Shown here in pieces: positions 6,362 to 14,093 of a stretch of DNA of 64,000 bases. Origin of the DNA: Tistrella mobilis (GTDB lineage Bacteria; Pseudomonadota; Alphaproteobacteria; Tistrellales; Tistrellaceae); assembly GCF_039634785.1 (NCBI RefSeq), contig NZ_JBBIAB010000005.1, forward strand, positions 124,001 to 188,000. The letters run 5' to 3'. Both the position numbers and the translations under genes were made by a program. Each line of letters starts with the position of its first letter. Position 1 is the first letter of the stretch. The notes beneath the pieces are model-generated. The model was not told the origin of the DNA, did no database searches, and saw only the letters and a program-made list of their open reading frames with translations.

Positions 6362-8188
6362 ATGCATGCCTATCGCTCGCATACCTGCAATGAACTGACG
6401 CTCGCCCATGAGGGCCAGACCGTCCGGCTTTCGGGCTGGGTGCATCGCAAGCGCGATCACGGCAATCTGCTGTTCATCGACCTGCGCGACCATTACGGCC
6501 TGACCCAGATCGTGGTCGACGTCGACAGCGCCGCCTTCAAGCTGGCGGAAGAGCTGAAGAACGAGAGCGTGATCACCGCGACCGGCCGGGTCGTGGCCCG
6601 CAGCCCCGAAACGGTGAACGCCGGCATGGCCACCGGCGAGATCGAGGTCCGGGTCGAGGAGCTGTCGCTGCAGTCGGCTGCGGACCCGCTGCCTCTGCAG
6701 GTCAACAGCGACCGCGACTATCCGGAAGACACCCGGCTGCGCTATCGCTATCTGGATCTGCGCCGCGAGCATGTTCACAAGAACATCGTGCTGCGCTCGC
6801 AGGTGATTTCGTCGCTGCGCCGGCGGATGACCGATCAGGGTTTCATGGAGTTCCAGACCCCGATCCTGACCGCGTCGAGCCCTGAAGGTGCCCGTGACTT
6901 CCTGGTGCCGAGCCGTATCCATCCGGGCAAGTTCTACGCCCTGCCGCAGGCGCCGCAGCAGTTCAAGCAGCTGCTGATGGTGGCGGGCTTCGATCGCTAC
7001 TTCCAGATCGCCCCCTGTTTCCGCGACGAGGACGCTCGCGCCGATCGCAGCCCGGGCGAGTTCTATCAGCTCGATATCGAGATGTCCTTCGTGACCCAGG
7101 AAGACGTCTTCCAGGCGATCGAGCCGGTGCTGCGGGGTGTGTTCGAGGAATTCGGCGGCACCCGCCATGTGCCCGCCGGGCCGTTCCCGCGCATTCCCTT
7201 TGCCGAAGCCATGTTGAAATACGGCTCCGACAAGCCCGATCTGCGCATCCCGATCGAGATTGCCGATGTGTCGGAGATCTTCCGCGGGTCCGGCTTCGGT
7301 GTTTTCGCCAAGGCGGTCGAGGCCGGCAAGGTGGTGCGTGCGGTGCCGGTGAAGAACGTCGCCGACCGGCCGCGCAGCTTCTTCGACAAGATGAACGACT
7401 GGGCCCGCGAGCAGGGTGCCCCGGGCATGGGCTGGATCGCCTTCGAGAATGGCGGCGGCAAGGGCCCGATCGCCAAGAATCTGGGCGATGAGCGTCTGGC
7501 GGAGATGAAGGCACAGCTGGGCCTTGGGGATGGCGACGGCGTGTTCTTCGCCACCGACGTGGCAGACAAGGCCGCGAAGCTGGCCGGTGCCGCCCGCCTC
7601 AAGCTGGGCGCCGAGCTCGACCTGATCGAGCCCGACGTCTTCCGGCTCTGCTGGATCGTCGACTTCCCGATGTACGAGTTCGACGAGAAGCTCGACCAGA
7701 TCGTGTTCAGCCACAACCCGTTCTCGATGCCGCAGGGCGGGCTCGAGGCGCTGAACACCAGGGATCCGCTGGAGATCAACGCCTATCAGTACGACATCGT
7801 CTGCAACGGCGTGGAACTCTCTTCGGGCGCGATTCGTAACCACAAGTCCGAGATCATGTACCGGGCCTTCGAGATCGCCGGCTATGGTCCCGAGGTGGTC
7901 GAGGACAAGTTCGGCGGGATGCTGAACGCCTTCCGCTTCGGCGCCCCGCCGCATGGCGGTATCGCGCCGGGTGTCGACCGCATCGTCATGCTGCTGGCCG
8001 ATCAGCCGAACATCCGTGAGGTCGTGGCCTTCCCGATGAACCAGCAGGCCCAGGACCCGATGATGAATGCGCCGCACGAGGCGACGCCTGAGCAGTTGAA
8101 GGAACTGCACCTGCGCGTGGTCCTGCCGCCTAAGGTGGTGAAGGCCGAAAAGCCAGCCGGAGATGCCGCGCCGGCTGCCGAGGCCTGA
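6362..8188 (+). CDS. aspS: Aspartyl-tRNA synthetase
   Basis: About 608 residues, a class II synthetase. The N-terminal anticodon-binding OB fold begins at [13 protein letters not shown]. The catalytic domain carries motif 2 ([11 protein letters not shown] followed by GEFYQLD) and motif 3 (GVDRIVMLL). The bacterial-type GAD insertion domain lies between motifs 2 and 3, and the length fits the bacterial family. The enzyme charges tRNA-Asp; whether it also mischarges tRNA-Asn (non-discriminating form) cannot be decided here. The start at 6362 ([12 protein letters not shown]) was chosen because this is where family similarity begins. A short Lys/Ala-rich tail ends the protein, and a strong hairpin follows. 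Confidence 0.95.
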
Positions 8189-8219
8189 CCAAAACTGCCG
8201 CCACCCCTGCCTGTACGAG

Positions 8220-8262
8220 GCCGGCCCTGCCCGATATCCGACGGGCACGGCCGGCTTCGTCA
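8220..8262 (+). terminator. Hairpin terminator after aspS
   Basis: A long inverted repeat at 8220-8255: GCCGGCC, a C-C mismatch, TGCCCG, then a loop and the complement. It is followed by TTCGTCATTT. It separates aspS from the peptide operon downstream. Confidence 0.65.
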
Positions 8263-8417
8263 TTTCAGGATCGGGGACAGGACATGGTTCAATGCCGGTT
8301 GACATGTCTGCAGGTGCGGATTGCCCGAGCGCCCGCCGCAGGGGATGATCACCCGGTCAGCAGGATCACCCTTCGGGGCCGCCGCTGCCGTGCATCATCC
8401 CTGAAAGGTGAGATCGC

Positions 8418-8690
8418 ATGCTATCCCGTGACGACGCTCTGAACCGCATTCTCGACCGCGCAACTGCCGACCCGGGATTTCGCGAGACAATGCTTCGCGA
8501 TCCGAAGGCTGCGATTTCCACACTGCTCGGGATCGAGCTGCCGACGGCGCTGGAGGTCATGGTGCATGAAGAGACCCCTTCGCGCCTGCACATCGTGCTG
8601 CCGCCGGCCGGCGATGCACTGGACGATGCGTCCCTGGAAGCGGTGTCGGGCGGCACTGTCGACTGGAATAACCTCAACTTCCCGATGTAG
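8418..8690 (+). CDS. NHLP-type leader peptide, probable RiPP precursor 1
   Basis: A 90-residue protein that resembles the nitrile-hydratase-like leader peptide (NHLP) family of RiPP precursors. A helical N-terminus contains RDPKAAIS (27-34), then GIELPTALEV (38-47) and a VHEETP...LHIVLPP segment (49-63). A linker rich in Asp and Leu follows, ending in EAVSGG at 74-79. Cleavage after the double Gly would release an 11-residue core, TVDWNNLNFPM, which has no Cys and a single Trp (83). The start has a GAAAGGTGAG-like ribosome site. It is the first gene of a four-gene operon ending at 11068. The precursor role is inferred; the leader similarity is clear. Confidence 0.8.
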   Translation: MLSRDDALNRILDRATADPGFRETMLRDPKAAISTLLGIELPTALEVMVHEETPSRLHIVLPPAGDALDDASLEAVSGGTVDWNNLNFPM

Positions 8691-8732
8691 TGCCAATCGG
8701 TCGTCAGTGGCGCCCGGAGAGAGAGAATTCTG

Positions 8733-9032
8733 ATGAGCATGGACGAGATTCTGGCCCGGATTGCAGCGGCCGTTCGGGAGAAGCCGGAGCTGGCGGCCCT
8801 TCTGGAGAGCGACCCGAAGTCAGCGGTCACGCAGATCTTCCGGGCGGCGCCCGCCATGGAGGACGGGGCGTTGGGCGACGATGCGCTGGATCGTGTCGCA
8901 GGTGGGACCGGCGGCTTTACCGATGCCGAGATTCAGCAGGCCCTGGCGCAGTTTCTGGCGTTGCGCGGCAATATCGACCTGACGCCGTGGCTGAACGCCC
9001 CGCAGTCTCCGCTGCTCGGCAACATGCGGTGA
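8733..9032 (+). CDS. Second Gly-Gly leader peptide, probable RiPP precursor 2
   Basis: A 99-residue protein with a GGAGAGAGAG ribosome site. Its first half parallels precursor 1: an amphipathic helix, then SDPKSAVTQ (26-34, compare RDPKAAIS), and an LDRVAGG cleavage-type motif at 52-58. It lacks the ELP...VLPP segment, so the leader is a shortened form. The predicted core of about 41 residues starts TGGFTD, contains a helical Ala/Gln/Leu stretch, and ends in IDLTPWLNAPQSPLLGNMR, with one Trp (86) and no Cys. As in precursor 1, the residue after the double Gly is Thr. It might instead be a cognate helper peptide rather than a substrate. It lies 43 bases after precursor 1 and 3 bases before the alpha-barrel gene. 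Confidence 0.7.
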   Translation: MSMDEILARIAAAVREKPELAALLESDPKSAVTQIFRAAPAMEDGALGDDALDRVAGGTGGFTDAEIQQALAQFLALRGNIDLTPWLNAPQSPLLGNMR

Positions 9033-9035
9033 CGG

Positions 9036-9974
9036 ATGGTGGAGATCGATCACGCCCTCGGTCTGGCCCTGGGCTGGCTGAACGATGCTGTTGCAGCCGA
9101 CGGCTGCTGGCCATCGCAGCGTGTGCCGGGCTCGCCCGATGATCCTGTCGGTCCCGCGATCGACGAGCGCACCCCCTTCGTGACGGCGGTGGGGCTTCTG
9201 GCGCTCGAGGGGCTTGCAGATTCGGAGCAGACAGAAATTGCCGCGCTGATCGACCGCTCGCGCGGGTTTCTTGTGCGCACCATGCGCGCACCCGGGGTCT
9301 GGGCCTATCTTGAGGGCTTCGTGCCCGATTGCGACGACACCGCCTGTGCCTCCATGGCACTCTCCGGCGCCCATCCCTGGATCGCATCCGGCCGCAATCG
9401 CGCTCTGGGGTTTGCAGCGCGGGTACCGGATGGCCGCTTCAGAACCTGGATGGCGGGGCCGAGAGCCGATCTGGACATCGACGCCGTGGTCAATGCCAAC
9501 ATGATCGGCTGGTTGGGCGACGCCGTCGAATGCCGGGCCGCGGCCGATTTCGTGATCGCAGCCTGTTCGGGATCTGCGCGGGAGGCGCTGGTCTTTTACG
9601 ACCATCCCATCGATCTGGCCCAGGCGGTCGCCCGTGCCGTTCGTCGGGGCACAGATAGCCTGCGGCCAGCACTGCGGGACGTCTCGAGGATGGCGGCCCA
9701 GGTGCTGGAGGATGATGGTGCGCCGCCCCTTCGTCTGGCGCAGGCCCTGGATGTTGCCGACGCCCTGGACATGCTGCCGCTGGCTGTCAGGGACCGCGCG
9801 ATTGCGCTGCTGGTCCGCGAGGTCGTCACGCATGGATACTGTCGCTCGGACACGATCTATCTGGGTGTCACCCCACCTGCACCGCCCGGCTGCCACTATC
9901 GCTCGGACGCATTGGCAACGGCATTGACGTTGGGGGCGTTGGCACGCGCGCGGAGGCGAGGGGGCGGCATATGA
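9036..9974 (+). CDS. Alpha-barrel (squalene cyclase/prenyltransferase-like) protein with DxDDTA motif
   Basis: 312 residues, mostly helical, resembling one alpha/alpha-barrel domain of the terpene cyclase/prenyltransferase fold. The key feature is PDCDDTACASMAL at 97-109: the DxDDTA pattern (Asp98, Asp100, Asp101, Thr102) is the acid motif of class II terpene cyclases. A second conserved-looking stretch, DIDAVVNANMIGWLG, lies at 147-161, and a C-terminal HYRSDALATALTLGAL at 287-302 resembles barrel repeats. At about 312 residues it is half the length of squalene-hopene cyclase, so a complete two-domain cyclase is absent. It sits directly after two peptide genes and overlaps the next gene by ATGA, which suggests action on, or together with, the peptides. 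The reaction is unknown. Confidence 0.6.
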   Translation: MVEIDHALGLALGWLNDAVAADGCWPSQRVPGSPDDPVGPAIDERTPFVTAVGLLALEGLADSEQTEIAALIDRSRGFLVRTMRAPGVWAYLEGFVPDCDDTACASMALSGAHPWIASGRNRALGFAARVPDGRFRTWMAGPRADLDIDAVVNANMIGWLGDAVECRAAADFVIAACSGSAREALVFYDHPIDLAQAVARAVRRGTDSLRPALRDVSRMAAQVLEDDGAPPLRLAQALDVADALDMLPLAVRDRAIALLVREVVTHGYCRSDTIYLGVTPPAPPGCHYRSDALATALTLGALARARRRGGGI

Positions 9975-11068
9975 CGGTCTTTGGTTCGGATGACAGCCGT
10001 CTTCATCATGGTCAGGGGATGGGGCCGGCCATTCAGGCGCTGCTGGGCGTGATGGGGCGCGATCTGGTTCCCCCGGAAGACCGCCGGCGGATCATGGATG
10101 TCGCTGCGGCGATACCGGCTGCCCTGGCGCGCAATTCTTTCGGTGTCGAACTGCGTGCCGATGCGCCGGATGGCGGACCCGTCGATCTCTGTGTCGCGAT
10201 GACCCACCAGGAGGTGGCGGACCCCGCCTGTGCGGCGGCCGATGGCCCCTGGCGGCGGCTCTGGTCGGATGAAGCCTGGGGGCGGGTGGTTCAGACGATT
10301 GACGCATGGCGGGGAGGGATGTTTCCCCAGCTGCGGGATCTGCTTCTGGAATTCGACACCGGCACACCCGGGGCACGGGATGCGGGCGTGTTCACCGCAC
10401 CGGTCGATCTGGCCGACGAGACCCCTGAGACTGTGCCGACCAACTGCTTTCACGCAGATCCGTCGGTTGGCTTTGCGCCGCTTTGCAGCCTGTCGGGCGA
10501 GATCGGGCCCGGGATACACGCGACCTTCAGGCGTCTGCTCGACCGGTTGCCACCCTGGGCCGAAGTCTTCCAGGCCGGCCGGATGATCGGTCGGGCCGAG
10601 GGGGCCGAAACCCTGCGGGTGGTGATCCGTCGCCTGCGACCCGACGCCATTCCGCCGCTGCTGGCCGGAGAAATGGATCCGGAGGTACGGGATCAGGTGC
10701 TGGGGTCCATCCTGCCGCTTTCCGATCGCCTGCAGCGGGCGGGGGGAGCGCTGGCGCTCTCCGTCGATCTCACGCCGGCCGGGATCTCGCCACGGGTCGG
10801 CATCGAGATCAACGATGATACCCGCTTCTATATGGGGCGCCCCGGAGCCTGGCCGCGATTCTTTGAGCTGATGGGCGAGGCGGGGACCGCCCATCCACAG
10901 CTGGCCGAGAGCGTCCTGCGGGCCGTCGGGCGCCACCGTCTCTTCGCCCGTATTCCCGCGGCGGCGATCCTGGTCGGGATCAGCCATGCCAAGCTGCTGC
11001 CGGCCACCGGCGGTCCGGCGGCAAAGATCTATCTGGGAGCCCGGCTCTGGCACGGCGCCCCGGAGTGA
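9971..11068 (+). CDS. Unrecognised protein of RiPP-like operon
   Basis: 365 residues; I do not recognise a named family. It has no signal peptide or membrane segment and reads as a soluble mixed alpha/beta protein. Candidate conserved patches are LLLEFD (124-129), a middle segment with RVVIRRL (216-222), SPRVGIEI (273-280), and a C-terminal GISHAKL (336-342) followed by AKIYLG (351-356). Several Trp pairs lie around 94-113. The start overlaps the alpha-barrel gene by four bases, so the two are translationally coupled and probably form a functional pair. In the context of two leader peptides a role in peptide tailoring is possible, but nothing in the sequence shows a catalytic site. It is the last gene before a strong terminator. 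Confidence 0.6.
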   Translation: MTVFGSDDSRLHHGQGMGPAIQALLGVMGRDLVPPEDRRRIMDVAAAIPAALARNSFGVELRADAPDGGPVDLCVAMTHQEVADPACAAADGPWRRLWSDEAWGRVVQTIDAWRGGMFPQLRDLLLEFDTGTPGARDAGVFTAPVDLADETPETVPTNCFHADPSVGFAPLCSLSGEIGPGIHATFRRLLDRLPPWAEVFQAGRMIGRAEGAETLRVVIRRLRPDAIPPLLAGEMDPEVRDQVLGSILPLSDRLQRAGGALALSVDLTPAGISPRVGIEINDDTRFYMGRPGAWPRFFELMGEAGTAHPQLAESVLRAVGRHRLFARIPAAAILVGISHAKLLPATGGPAAKIYLGARLWHGAPE

Positions 11069-11134
11069 CGATCTCAAAGAAAGCATTTTATTTAAATTTA
11101 GGAAAATTTATCTGAGGGTACGTAGTGTCTGAAC

Positions 11135-11180
11135 ACGAACGGGGCGCCGCAGATCTTGCGGCGCCCCGTTCGTTTAAATC
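11135..11180. terminator. Bidirectional terminator between RiPP-like operon and mucR
   Basis: A perfect inverted repeat with 17-bp arms (11135-11151 and 11157-11173) and a GATCT loop. Arms are GC-rich in the middle and followed by TTTAAAT. It serves the plus-strand operon and probably also the converging mucR gene. It is preceded by a very AT-rich stretch at 11083-11113. Confidence 0.85.
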
Positions 11181-11227
11181 GTCCGACGATCGTTCAACGC
11201 GGTCCCGCGTGAACGCGATGCCGGTTT

Positions 11228-11701
11228 TCAGGCCTGCGCAGCCCGCCGGCCGCCCCGGGCCCGCGGCGCATTGGTCGCACGACCCAGGCCGATCTTCTTG
11301 GCGAAGTCCGACCGCTGGCGCGCATAATTGGGCGCGACCATCGGATAATCCGGCGCCAGGCCCCATTTGGCACGGTATTCCTCGGGCGTCATGCCATAAT
11401 TGGCACGCAGATGCCGCTTCAGCATCTTCAGCTTCTTGCCGTCTTCCAGGCAGACGATGTAGTCCGGCGTGATCGACTTCCGCACCGGAACCGCAGGCTT
11501 CTGCGCTTCTTCGCGCACGACTTCCTGTGCGGTCGCCGTGCCGTTCTGCTGGTCGTTCAGCGCCCCGTAAACCGTCTGAATGATCTCGGGCAGTTGCTGG
11601 GCCGGCAGGCTGTTGTGGCTGACATAGGCCGCGACGATCTGCGCGGCCATGCTCAGCAGCTTGTCATGGGCGATGGTGGGGTTTTCGGAACTATCCGACA
11701 T
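11228..11701 (-). CDS. MucR/Ros family transcriptional regulator
   Basis: 157 residues matching the MucR/Ros family of small DNA-binding proteins: an N-terminal oligomerisation helix (about 10-50), a linker, and a C-terminal Ros-type finger domain with KMLKRHLRANYGMTPEEYR (92-110) and the signature YPMVAPNYARQRSDFAKKIGLG region (119-140). MucR proteins bind AT-rich sites and control surface polysaccharide, motility and cell-cycle genes. Compared with a Cys2His2 finger, Cys84 and His97 remain, but the second Cys is Asp87 and the second His is Tyr102, so classical zinc binding looks lost. The tail is Arg/Ala-rich. The start at 11701 (MSDSSEN) fits the family. It faces the RiPP-like operon and shares its terminator. 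Confidence 0.9.
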   Translation of the reverse strand: MSDSSENPTIAHDKLLSMAAQIVAAYVSHNSLPAQQLPEIIQTVYGALNDQQNGTATAQEVVREEAQKPAVPVRKSITPDYIVCLEDGKKLKMLKRHLRANYGMTPEEYRAKWGLAPDYPMVAPNYARQRSDFAKKIGLGRATNAPRARGGRRAAQA

Positions 11702-12196
11702 GGAGCGCTCGCTTTCCGATGGCTGGCAGCCGTTGTAGTCGCCGCACAATGTGTTGCCGCAGGACAGTCCGCACGTCTTCCAGATCATATCGAACCGGCG
11801 TCGCTCCGGATAGAACCACGTCCGGAACTTGGTCCGGTTGGGGTGCACGGGCGCCCTGCAAATATCACTCGCCGCATGATGACTTGCACCCACAGATACC
11901 ACAACAGAAATATGGCGGGAGGTGGTGACTTTATCAGTATTGGTCCACAATCGACGGCGGTGGATTTGGAAAATGGGGGATGCATCCGGTACGGCGGACG
12001 ACAGGGGTCCGTGACCATGCATGCGCCGACGATGGGCCATGTGTGTACCGCAGTTGGCGCGGCAGGCGGGTTGTGTTAAGGGAGAGGGGCGCCGCGACCG
12101 GGCTTCCGGAACCGGGCTCCGACGCCGGATATCCGGCACCGGAACCCCGGTCATCGGGCCGGTCGCCTGGGTCTCGATGCGATGGAAGGGGTCGGA
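11702..12196. other. Divergent spacer between mucR and rpiB
   Basis: About 495 bases with no gene I can support. It must hold the promoters of mucR (leftward) and rpiB (rightward). Part of it (about 11850-11950) is richer in A/T than its surroundings, which would suit MucR autoregulation, but no clear -35/-10 pair was found. Confidence 0.5.
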
Positions 12197-12640
12197 ATGT
12201 CCGAGGACAGCACCCGTATCGTGGCGATCGCCTGTGATCACGGCGGCGTCGACCTCAAAACGGTCCTGAAGGAAGATCTCGCCGCCCGAGGTCTGGAGGT
12301 CCTGGACCTCGGGACCGATGGATCCGCTTCGGTGGACTATCCCGATTTCGCCAATGCACTGGCGGCCGCCCTGGCCGAGGGACGTGCGGCACGGGGCGTG
12401 CTGATCTGCGGATCCGGCATCGGCATCTCGATCGCTGCCAACCGTCATCCCCATATCCGGGCCGCCCTGGTCCACGACGCGCTCACCGCCAGGCTTTGCC
12501 GCGAGCACAATGATGCCAATGTCGTGGCCTTCGGGGCCCGCGTGACCGGCGTCGAGACCGCACGGGACGCGCTCCGGGTCTTCCTGGATACGCCCTTCGA
12601 AGGCGGTCGCCATCAGCGGCGGGTCGACAAGCTCGGCTGA
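12197..12640 (+). CDS. rpiB: Ribose-5-phosphate isomerase B
   Basis: 147 residues of the RpiB/LacAB family. Visible landmarks are ACDHGG (12-17), the phosphate-binding and catalytic loop [13 protein letters not shown] (71-83) with Cys71, and the [10 protein letters not shown] segment (101-110) with His104. It interconverts ribose-5-phosphate and ribulose-5-phosphate in the pentose phosphate pathway. The start at 12197 has GGAAGGGG about eight bases upstream; an in-frame ATG at 12182 is possible but would overlap that site. It precedes glyA, a common pairing in alphaproteobacteria. Confidence 0.92.
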
Positions 12641-12794
12641 CCGCACAGATCCGTTCGTGACGGCGGCGGTGCTCCGGTGTGTGCGGGGTGCCGCCGCCGC
12701 CGTTCCAGTATCCGACCGCATGAGGTCGTTTCGACCGTCCCGGTCTCAGCGTCTTGTCCCGCACGAGCGCGACCCCGTCAGAAAGTGCCGACCG

Positions 12795-14093
12795 ATGACC
12801 GATCAGACCCCCAGCTACAGTGCCGCGGCCTTCTTCCGCGCGGCTCTCGCCGATGACGCCGAGCTGATGCGCTCGATCAACGACGAACTTGCCCGGCAGC
12901 GTGACCAGATCGAGCTGATCGCTTCCGAGAACATTGCAAGCCCGGCGGTGATCGCAGCCCAGGGCACGGTGCTGACCAACAAATATGCCGAGGGCTATCC
13001 GGGCAAGCGCTATTACGGCGGCTGCGAATATGTCGACGTCGCCGAAAAGCTGGCGATCGAGCGGGCCTGTGCCCTGTTTGGTTGTGGCTTTGCGAATGTT
13101 CAGCCCCATTCGGGTGCCCAGGCCAACCAGGCGGTGTTCCAGGCCCTGCTGCAGCCGGGCGACACCATTCTGGGCCTGTCGCTGGCGGCCGGCGGCCATC
13201 TGACCCATGGTGCGGCGCCGAACCAGTCGGGCAAATGGTTCCATGCGGTTCAGTATGGTGTCCGCCCTGAGGACGGCCGCATCGACATGGACGAGGTCGA
13301 GCGGCTGGCGAAGGAAAGCAAGCCGAAGCTGATCATCGCCGGCGGGTCGGCCTATAGCCGCGTCTTCGACTTCGCGCGCTTCCGTGCGATCGCGGACGAG
13401 GTCGGTGCCTATCTGATGGTCGATATGGCCCATTTCGCGGGTCTGGTGGCCGCCGGCGCCCATCCGTCGCCGCTGCCGCATGCCCATGTCGTCACCACCA
13501 CCACCCACAAGACCCTGCGTGGTCCGCGCGGTGGCATGGTGCTGACCGATGACGAGGCGCTGGCCAAGAAGATCAACTCGGCCGTCTTCCCCGGTCTGCA
13601 GGGTGGCCCGCTGATGCATGTCATCGCCGGCAAGGCGGTTGCCTTCGGCGAGGCGCTGCGTCCGGAATTCAAAGCCTATGCCCGCCAGGTCGTGGCGAAT
13701 GCCCAGGTGCTGGCCGAGACGCTGGTGGCCGGCGGTCTCGACATCGTCACCGGCGGCACCGACAATCACCTGATGCTGGTCGATCTTCGTCCGAAGGGTC
13801 TTAAGGGCAATGCCACCGAGCATGCGCTTGAGCGCACGGGCATGACCTGCAACAAGAACGCCATCCCCTTCGACCCCGAGAAGCCGATGGTGACCTCGGG
13901 CATCCGCCTCGGCACTCCGGCTGCCACGACCCGCGGCTTCGGCGAGGCCGAATTCCGCCAGGTGGGCGAGATGATCGTCCGCGTGCTCGATGCGCTGGCG
14001 GCGAAGCCCGAAGGCGATGCCGAGGTGGAGGCGGCCATGCGGGCCGAGGTCAAGGCGCTCTGCGACCGCTTCCCGATCTACCCGGCCCTGTGA
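12795..14093 (+). CDS. glyA: Serine hydroxymethyltransferase
   Basis: 432 residues, full length for GlyA. The PLP-binding lysine is Lys239 in [14 protein letters not shown]. Other family landmarks are [14 protein letters not shown] near the N-terminus and [15 protein letters not shown]. It converts serine and tetrahydrofolate to glycine and methylene-tetrahydrofolate, the main source of one-carbon units. The start at 12795 was chosen because upstream in-frame residues do not match the family; the 150-base gap after rpiB probably contains regulatory sequence, although no promoter was evident. A perfect hairpin follows the stop. Confidence 0.96.

What the first reader, a model, noticed from the sequence alone, without database searches (positions are those of the whole stretch)
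8418..11068. Compact four-gene RiPP-like operon with an unusual enzyme pair
Seen directly: two short genes with Gly-Gly-ending leaders, then two larger genes in tight order (gaps of 43 and 3 bases and a 4-base overlap) closed by a perfect 17-bp terminator. Known: NHLP-type leaders precede modified core peptides, usually with radical SAM, LanM, cyclodehydratase or similar enzymes and a peptidase-ABC exporter. None of these is here. Instead there is an alpha-barrel protein with a DxDDTA motif and a protein of no recognised family. Inference: a RiPP class with unfamiliar tailoring chemistry, possibly isoprenoid related.
Basis: partly seen in the sequence, partly recalled or inferred. Interest (0 to 1): 0.8.

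Follow-up and report, generated by a model that had tools for sequence, protein, structure and literature searches.

The report
Terpene-decorating operon for small peptides
A four-gene operon in the bacterium Tistrella most likely attaches an oily terpene chain to a tryptophan of a small gene-encoded peptide and folds that chain into rings, using as two separate enzymes what described cases do with one fused enzyme.

Summary
The operon is real. Gene 1 (8418-8690) is an NHLP RiPP precursor over the NCBIfam cut-off; gene 2 has a shortened leader of that kind; dN/dS between Tistrella species is low for all four genes. Both "unfamiliar" enzymes can be placed. Gene 3 is a single-domain member of the squalene-hopene/class II terpene cyclase superfamily (family profile against solved cyclases, E about 1e-11; the likely catalytic Asp100 is invariant in 21 of 21 homologues). 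Gene 4 is probably an ABBA-barrel prenyltransferase: its low-confidence model aligns best with ABBA enzymes (first eight rows), and its family forms the first half of fused proteins whose second half is cyclase-like. In ten close loci outside Tistrella genes 3 and 4 occur together in ten, with NHLP precursors in nine and NHLP-type exporters in nine; 11 of the 12 precursors there end in Trp. Fused prenyltransferase-cyclase RiPP enzymes are published (NctPC, ChrPC), so this is a new variant of a known kind: a split pair, minimal in Tistrella and, in five of the ten other loci, near a YcaO azole enzyme. The chemistry is inferred, not shown.

The parts
8418..8690 (+). Gene 1: NHLP-type RiPP precursor; proposed core after SGG: TVDWNNLNFPM
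   Evidence: TIGR03793 67.9 bits, cut-off 50.9; core TVDWNNLNFPM or NVDWNNLHFPM in three Tistrella genomes; dN/dS 0.08
8733..9032 (+). Gene 2: second precursor with a shortened NHLP-like leader; core after AGG of about 40 residues with one Trp
   Evidence: Own NHLP profile matches both ends of the leader; present in L006 and L007
9036..9974 (+). Gene 3: single-domain class II terpene cyclase-like protein (DCDDTA, Asp100 as likely proton donor; TW, VNAN and FY stretches)
   Evidence: Profile A5 against PDB: drimenol synthase E 2.5e-11, squalene-hopene cyclase 2.4e-10; Asp100, W138, N153, N155, Y188 in 21 of 21 homologues
9971..11068 (+). Gene 4: probable ABBA-barrel peptide prenyltransferase (H339, K341, K352 invariant in 16 sequences; Y354 nearly so)
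   Evidence: Helix-hairpin order of the model; first eight VIA-align rows are ABBA prenyltransferases; a profile made without Tistrella finds it at E 4.9e-11 and also finds the N-half of fused proteins L083-L085; A7
11135..11173 (.). 17-bp inverted repeat, possible two-way terminator between the operon and the convergent MucR-type gene
   Evidence: no T-run
8404..8413 (+). Likely ribosome-binding stretch (AAAGGTGAGA) before gene 1
   Evidence: Read directly from the sequence; inference

Best explanation
The operon makes a terpenylated RiPP. Genes 1 and 2 encode precursors with NHLP-type leaders. Gene 4, an ABBA-barrel prenyltransferase guided by the leader, moves a prenyl group (probably C10-C20) from a prenyl diphosphate to the conserved Trp of the core. 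Gene 3, a monodomain class II cyclase, protonates the far end of the attached chain with Asp100 and closes it into one or more rings. The leader is then cut after Gly-Gly and the product exported by an NHLP-type C39-peptidase ABC transporter encoded elsewhere in the genome. Shown here: gene 1 leader, coding nature, homology of gene 3 to class II cyclases, co-occurrence of gene 3 and gene 4 families with NHLP precursors, homology of gene 4 to the first half of fused proteins with a cyclase-like second half, an exporter in trans. Inferred: ABBA fold and activity of gene 4, Trp as acceptor, chain length, order of steps, use of that exporter.
For: NHLP leader over cut-off. Cyclase superfamily at E 1e-10 to 1e-11 for the family profile, Asp100 in 21 of 21. 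Gene-4 model: first eight VIA rows and 26 of 50 are ABBA prenyltransferases; the gene-3 model run the same way gave a mixed list and no Z of 5. Gene-4 domain plus cyclase-like half in one polypeptide in L083 and L085, probably L084. In two searches of 385 genomes of the class 14 have gene 3, 15 have gene 4, 11 have both, three of these Tistrella. In 10 close loci (8 genomes, 5 genera) outside Tistrella both genes 10 of 10, NHLP 9 of 10, ABC1/ABC2 pair 9 of 10. Independent profiles: without Tistrella, window gene 4 E 4.9e-11; from the ten loci only, window gene 3 E 1.4e-44. Gene-4 relatives sit with LanM and Nif11 (L092), radical SAM and Nif11 (L095), NHLP (L093, L094). Distant gene-3 relatives lie with a UbiA prenyltransferase in 3 loci. 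16 of 28 precursors beside gene-4 relatives outside Tistrella end in Trp. NHLM exporter in trans, 1042.6 bits, cut-off 853.3.
Against: Sequence profiles of gene 4 find no ABBA protein in PDB and no family. The gene-4 model is poor (pLDDT 39.5); Z values of 4-6 are in the range the tool calls common, an unrelated designed protein is ninth with Z 4.8, and Foldseek alone gave nothing significant. The gene-3 model showed no cyclase fold, and the window gene 3 alone is under the Pfam and NCBIfam cut-offs. 12 of 28 precursors do not end in Trp (Y, F, C, M, S, S, D, K, G, Q, L, H). Four gene-4 loci (L087-L090) have no gene 3 in the stretch held (two of them at contig ends). In Tistrella the Trp is internal. 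In T. mobilis KA081020-065 gene 4 reads in two frames.
Confidence: 0.72

Rival explanations
1. Prenylation without ring closure: gene 4 prenylates the peptide and gene 3 is not a cyclase but a binding or protein-prenyltransferase-beta-like partner (same alpha-alpha barrel superfamily, recalled) that positions chain or peptide.
For: Gene-4 relatives occur without a gene 3 found (L087-L090, L092-L095), so gene 4 may work alone. In the ten other RiPP loci the motif is DxDS or, once, ExDS... (L059 EVDS), not DxDD. The hit of the window protein alone to squalene-hopene cyclase is local and weak.
Against: The middle Asp, the proton donor in class II cyclases (recalled), is invariant in 21 of 21, and a fused relative has a C-half over the SQHop_cyclase_C cut-off (L083). 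The fused enzyme NctPC is reported to cyclise after prenylation (PMC13290415).
Confidence: 0.13
2. The residue modified is Cys (or another side chain), not Trp; the C-terminal aromatic residue serves recognition.
For: Many cores are CCCW, and some that keep CCC lose the Trp (CCCF in L087, RCCC in L088).
Against: Several cores carry no Cys (L052, L058, L059, Tistrella), and YcaO, an azole enzyme, is a natural user of the Cys residues where present.
Confidence: 0.08
3. Not a working RiPP pathway in Tistrella now: a decaying or repurposed remnant.
For: No exporter or other queried maturase beside it; gene 4 is in two frames in one strain; dN/dS of gene 3 is 0.42 against the nearer genome.
Against: dN/dS 0.08-0.22 against the more distant genome, near-identical core in three genomes, exporter in trans.
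Confidence: 0.05

Closest known systems
NctPC / ChrPC fused prenyltransferase-terpene cyclase RiPP enzymes (Hubrich et al. 2024, seen as a citation in PMC13290415)
   Same: Peptide prenylation followed by ring closure of the chain; [quoted passage not shown]
   Different: Here P and C are separate genes, C first. Fused relatives found here: L083, L085, probably L084
PalX/PalQ (PMC10853753)
   Same: NHLP precursor with conserved Trp and an adjacent Trp prenyltransferase in a three-gene cluster (first of four parts and passages)
   Different: PalQ belongs to the isoprenoid synthase superfamily; the gene-4 model does not look like that; the three genes named there include no cyclase
MppC lanthipeptide prenyltransferase (PMC12715784)
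   Same: ABBA-type enzyme that geranylates a Trp in a leader-dependent way, Nif11 leader (passages)
   Different: Works with a LanM; no cyclase in the passages seen. Sequence not compared. A gene-4 relative sits in a LanM/Nif11 cluster (L092)
Monodomain class II terpene cyclase MstE and squalene-hopene cyclase
   Same: Single-domain size and DxDD-type motif; profile similarity to solved class II cyclases
   Different: Proposed substrate is a peptide-bound chain; extra TW/VNAN/FY stretches; MstE is known to me only from the review and recall
Cyanobactin (F-family) prenyltransferases such as LimF and PatF
   Same: Among the rows of the VIA list
   Different: No sequence similarity detected; cyanobactin enzymes act without the leader (PMC12715784)

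Membership tests
NHLP RiPP precursor (TIGR03793) | Leader domain over curated cut-off | tested here: met
   Gene 1: 67.9 bits, cut-off 50.9. Gene 2: no match to that model, partial match to own profile
NHLP RiPP precursor (TIGR03793) | Modified core released by a Gly-Gly peptidase | not testable with these tools
   GG present; TIGR03796 exporter in the genome at C21
Class II terpene cyclase / squalene-hopene superfamily | Sequence profile similarity | tested here: met
   A5 against PDB E 2.5e-11 and 2.4e-10. Window protein alone is under the Pfam cut-off (14.3, cut-off 26.1)
Class II terpene cyclase / squalene-hopene superfamily | DxDD motif with catalytic middle Asp | tested here: met
   DCDD in the window; middle Asp 21 of 21; last position Ser in the ten non-Tistrella RiPP loci
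Class II terpene cyclase / squalene-hopene superfamily | Cyclase fold | tested here: inconclusive
   Model all-helical but of low confidence (35.1); no cyclase among the fold matches
Class II terpene cyclase / squalene-hopene superfamily | Protonation-started cyclisation activity | not testable with these tools
   -
ABBA aromatic/peptide prenyltransferase | Ten-strand antiparallel barrel of five alpha-beta-beta-alpha repeats | tested here: inconclusive
   Low-confidence model with helices and hairpins in that kind of order; first eight VIA rows are ABBA, Z 6.0-4.9
ABBA aromatic/peptide prenyltransferase | Sequence similarity to a known ABBA family | tested here: not met
   No hit in Pfam, NCBIfam or PDB sequences. 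So it is described as probably working like an ABBA enzyme, not filed under a named ABBA family
Prenyltransferase-cyclase (PC) RiPP enzymes | P-like and C-like genes in one RiPP locus | tested here: met
   13 loci with both (10 plus 3 Tistrella). Activities untested
Prenyltransferase-cyclase (PC) RiPP enzymes | P and C fused in one protein | tested here: not met
   Separate, overlapping genes 9036-9974 and 9971-11068; fused form in L083, L085, probably L084. The review describes the class by fused examples
PalQ/ComQ isoprenoid-synthase-type Trp prenyltransferases | Isoprenoid synthase fold | tested here: inconclusive
   Gene-4 model is alpha/beta, which speaks against it, but is of low confidence; no family match for gene 4

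The most novel reading that the evidence does not exclude
A recurrent alphaproteobacterial RiPP class in which a split ABBA prenyltransferase and a stand-alone class II cyclase build a cyclic terpene on the C-terminal Trp of NHLP precursors. In the Cys-Cys-Cys-Trp clusters this would be combined with YcaO azole formation, and the cyclase carries its own NHLP-like N-terminal domain that docks it to the pathway, giving azole-terpenoid hybrid peptides. Tistrella would hold the smallest version, with two precursors.
Probability: 0.3. Interest if true: 0.82.

Novelty: new variant of a known kind. Interest (0 to 1): 0.62.

Why it matters
Cyclised terpene groups on ribosomal peptides are a recent discovery, described with fused enzymes. 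The CCCW loci with a YcaO suggest hybrids of azole and terpene chemistry.

Tried and rejected
Considered and rejected: gene 3 as a complement/TED-type barrel (E 0.08, far below the cyclases); gene 4 and the 329-aa partner of L011/L047/L048 as one family (BLASTP and hhalign found nothing); a link between gene-3 presence and Trp-terminal cores (9 of 10 loci with versus 0 of 3 without, Fisher p 0.014), which I do not claim, because L092 and L094 have Trp-terminal precursors with no gene 3 found and the loci are related.

L061 (G005) matched the gene-3 profile but shows HEAT repeats and was left out of the conservation count; one of the 17 gene-3 matches (G722:C61, E 1.3e-7) was not fetched. Caution on counts: the gene-4 profile was built partly from the sequences it then matched; L052 and L056 were not in it, and repeats the test with Tistrella left out. 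The NHLP profile was likewise seeded with window, L028 and other leaders; of the precursors outside Tistrella only those of L052 (one of four) and L055 were checked against TIGR03793 (both over the cut-off).

Literature: searches. None of the 15 papers listed (of 39) mentions Tistrella. Hubrich et al. 2024 and Moosmann et al. 2020 are not held; I saw only their citations and the review's sentences. That class II cyclases use the middle Asp as acid is recalled.
Full report
What is there. Four same-strand genes at 8418-11068 lie between aspS and a convergent MucR-type gene (these two names are read from the translations, not searched). Spacing is 42, 3 and -4 bases. Gene 1 is an NHLP precursor (TIGR03793, 67.9 bits, cut-off 50.9). 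Gene 2 has a leader that matches positions 3-37 and 64-78 of an NHLP profile built here, the middle absent. The genome belongs to Tistrella (Alphaproteobacteria): the barrel is 91% identical in T. mobilis KA081020-065 and 75% in a second genome of the genus. The four genes are in the same order in both, with dN/dS of 0.08, 0.13, 0.22 and 0.16 against the more distant one and 0.02, 0.19, 0.42 for genes 1-3 against the nearer one. In KA081020-065 gene 4 is read in two frames, either decay or a sequencing error. The 17-bp inverted repeat folds strongly (-37.7 kcal/mol, z -6.5) and its core is kept in both relatives, once with a paired change, but no T-run follows.

Gene 3. The window protein alone gives only sub-threshold hits to squalene-hopene cyclase models. 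A profile of six homologues (A5) finds solved class II cyclases: drimenol synthase 2.5e-11, squalene-hopene cyclase 2.4e-10, and two proteins of about 360 residues named as squalene-hopene type at 1e-4 and 8e-4. In 21 homologues (three of them Tistrella) the middle Asp of the DxDD motif (D100) is invariant, with G23, F48, G133, T137, W138, N153, N155 and Y188; the first Asp is kept in 20; the last position is Asp in Tistrella and the eight distant ones but Ser in all ten other RiPP loci. The AlphaFold model was poor (pLDDT 35.1, all helical) and gave no useful fold match.

Gene 4. No Pfam or NCBIfam family. The AlphaFold model is of low confidence (pLDDT 39.5) but shows helices alternating with beta hairpins. 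VIA-align of that model puts ABBA aromatic prenyltransferases in the first eight rows (NotF, AtaPT three times, AnaPT, LimF, FgaPT2, AuraA; Z 6.0 to 4.9; 99 to 204 residues aligned at 3.5-5.6 A) and in 26 of 50 rows; row nine is an unrelated designed protein at 4.8. The same procedure on the gene-3 model gave a mixed list with no Z of 5, so one family filling the list is not a habit of poor models in general, though this is a single control. The tool warns that Z under 8 can mean only a common arrangement, and sequence profiles find no ABBA protein in PDB, so the fold remains an inference. The family alignment A7 (16 sequences) keeps H339, K341, K352, D129 and W294 in all and E60, R208, R216 and Y354 in at least 90%.

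The two belong together. In two searches of 385 genomes of the class, 14 hold gene 3 (E up to 1e-6) and 15 gene 4 (E up to 1e-5); 11 hold both, three of them Tistrella. I fetched 13 of the 17 gene-3 matches (three others are Tistrella, one was not fetched). The ten close ones (L050-L059) come from eight genomes of five genera. Gene 4 is present in 10 of 10 (L056 in two pieces at a contig end), an NHLP precursor in 9 of 10 (the exception is L056; another contig of that genome, L091, has part of a gene 4 with an NHLP precursor), the ABC1/ABC2 pair in 9, MMPL in 6, YcaO in 5, a flavin enzyme of the Trp-halogenase family in 3 (families named on L055). Because the profiles were partly made from these loci, I repeated the test: a gene-4 profile without Tistrella finds window gene 4 at 4.9e-11, L083 at 7.5e-21, L084 at 4.5e-16, L085 at 1.9e-15 and L092 at 2.5e-24; a gene-3 profile of the ten loci finds window gene 3 at 1.4e-44, and a Tistrella-only gene-3 profile finds all ten loci at 2.5e-23 or better. 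The reverse gene-4 test is weak: a profile of two Tistrella sequences finds only L059, L091, L092 and L088 (1.9e-6 to 2e-3).

Fused relatives. L083 and L085 encode proteins of about 700 residues with a gene-4 domain followed by a cyclase-like half: the full gene-3 profile matches it at 1.6e-5 and 3e-4, SQHop_cyclase_C at 31.6 bits (cut-off 26.1) in L083 and 24.5, just under, in L085. L084 has the gene-4 domain and a DADSTA stretch but no significant cyclase match. L085 is from the second Tistrella genome, so the genus holds both forms. No NHLP precursor was found beside these three.

Gene 4 without gene 3. L087-L090 have gene 4 and the ABC1/ABC2 pair (only part of ABC2 in L088, at a contig end); three of the four have an NHLP precursor; no gene 3 lies in the stretches held, two of which end at or near the gene. 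Farther relatives on plasmids sit with LanM and Nif11 (Pseudanabaena L092, where gene 4 is fused to a 2OG-Fe(II) oxygenase), radical SAM and Nif11 (Acaryochloris L095, gene 4 in two ORFs), and NHLP precursors (Nostoc UHCC 0926 L093, Azospirillum B510 L094). So gene 4 looks like the broader RiPP enzyme and gene 3 an add-on.

Gene 3 without gene 4. Five loci (L011, L047, L048, L060, L062) pair it with another unannotated protein; three (Nostoc C052 L005, in one protein; L010; Novosphingobium L049) with a UbiA-type prenyltransferase. No NHLP precursor was found in these eight. L061 is probably spurious.

Likely acceptor. Outside Tistrella, 16 of 28 precursors beside gene-4 relatives end in Trp: LCCCW in L050, L051, L053, L054, L055, L057 and L091; four ...NW in L052...SW in L058...KW in L092; three of four in L094. 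The other twelve end in Y (L059), F (L087), C (L088), M (L090), Q (L094), S, S, D, K, G (L093), L (a second Nif11 of L092, in two ORFs) and H, after Trp (L095). In Tistrella the Trp is internal (VDWNN) and kept in three genomes.

Export. No transporter of the queried kinds is near, but the genome has a TIGR03796 peptidase-exporter at C21 (1042.6 bits, cut-off 853.3) about 5 kb from NHLP precursors.

Mechanism proposed. Leader-guided prenylation of the core Trp by gene 4, Asp100-started ring closure of the chain by gene 3, cleavage after Gly-Gly and export in trans. The first two steps are what the review PMC13290415 reports for NctPC (geranylgeranyl transfer to Trp by an alpha-beta-beta-alpha domain, then cyclisation by a domain like MstE) and, with another P domain, ChrPC (passages). 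PalX/PalQ (PMC10853753; first of four parts and passages) is a precedent for an NHLP precursor whose Trp is prenylated, and MppC (PMC12715784; passages) for a leader-dependent enzyme of the ABBA kind.

Verdict. I did not find this split arrangement in the papers that I could search, but the key paper is not held.

Noticed in passing
L028 (G000:C42:3000-19597), 9384-13110: Seven NHLP precursors in a row, six with a Trp 2 to 5 residues after the end of the leader, beside an ABC transporter of the exporter type, a FecCD permease and a TonB receptor. None of the four neighbours scanned is a modification enzyme, so the window enzymes might act on them in trans.
   Followed up: partly
L050, L051, L053, L055, L056, L057 (gene-3 relatives); a remnant in L054, cut by the contig end: The cyclase-like protein carries an N-terminal NHLP-like domain, a leader-type domain fused to an enzyme (L055: TIGR03793 45.3 bits, just under the cut-off; profile hits).
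   Followed up: partly
L011, L047 (Calothrix plasmid), L048 (Azospirillum lipoferum plasmid), L060, L062: Gene-3 relatives paired with a second unannotated protein family (279-329 residues in L011, L047, L048) whose sequences read like repeated beta hairpins, in some loci near large unannotated proteins and, in L048, a protein annotated as HBL/NHE family.
   Followed up: partly
L005 (Nostoc C052 plasmid), L010, L049 (Novosphingobium): Gene-3 relatives with a UbiA prenyltransferase, in L005 within one protein with a PhyH domain and TPR repeats, near glycosyltransferase, sulfotransferase and ABC transporter genes: perhaps a surface meroterpenoid pathway.
   Followed up: partly
L006:8681-10031: Gene 4 of T. 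mobilis KA081020-065 is read in two frames; a same-species genome (G539, possibly the same strain) shows the same split.
   Followed up: partly
L085 (G001:C4:1575000-1592500), 6804-10541: In the second Tistrella genome the fused prenyltransferase-cyclase gene lies near a small PqqD-like ORF and an HPr-kinase-like ORF, a possible separate RiPP cluster (names from the look of the translation, not searched).
   Followed up: no
L031 (G000:C2:355000-370000), 6429-9326: Five further, divergent NHLP-like precursors in a row; their neighbours were not searched.
   Followed up: no
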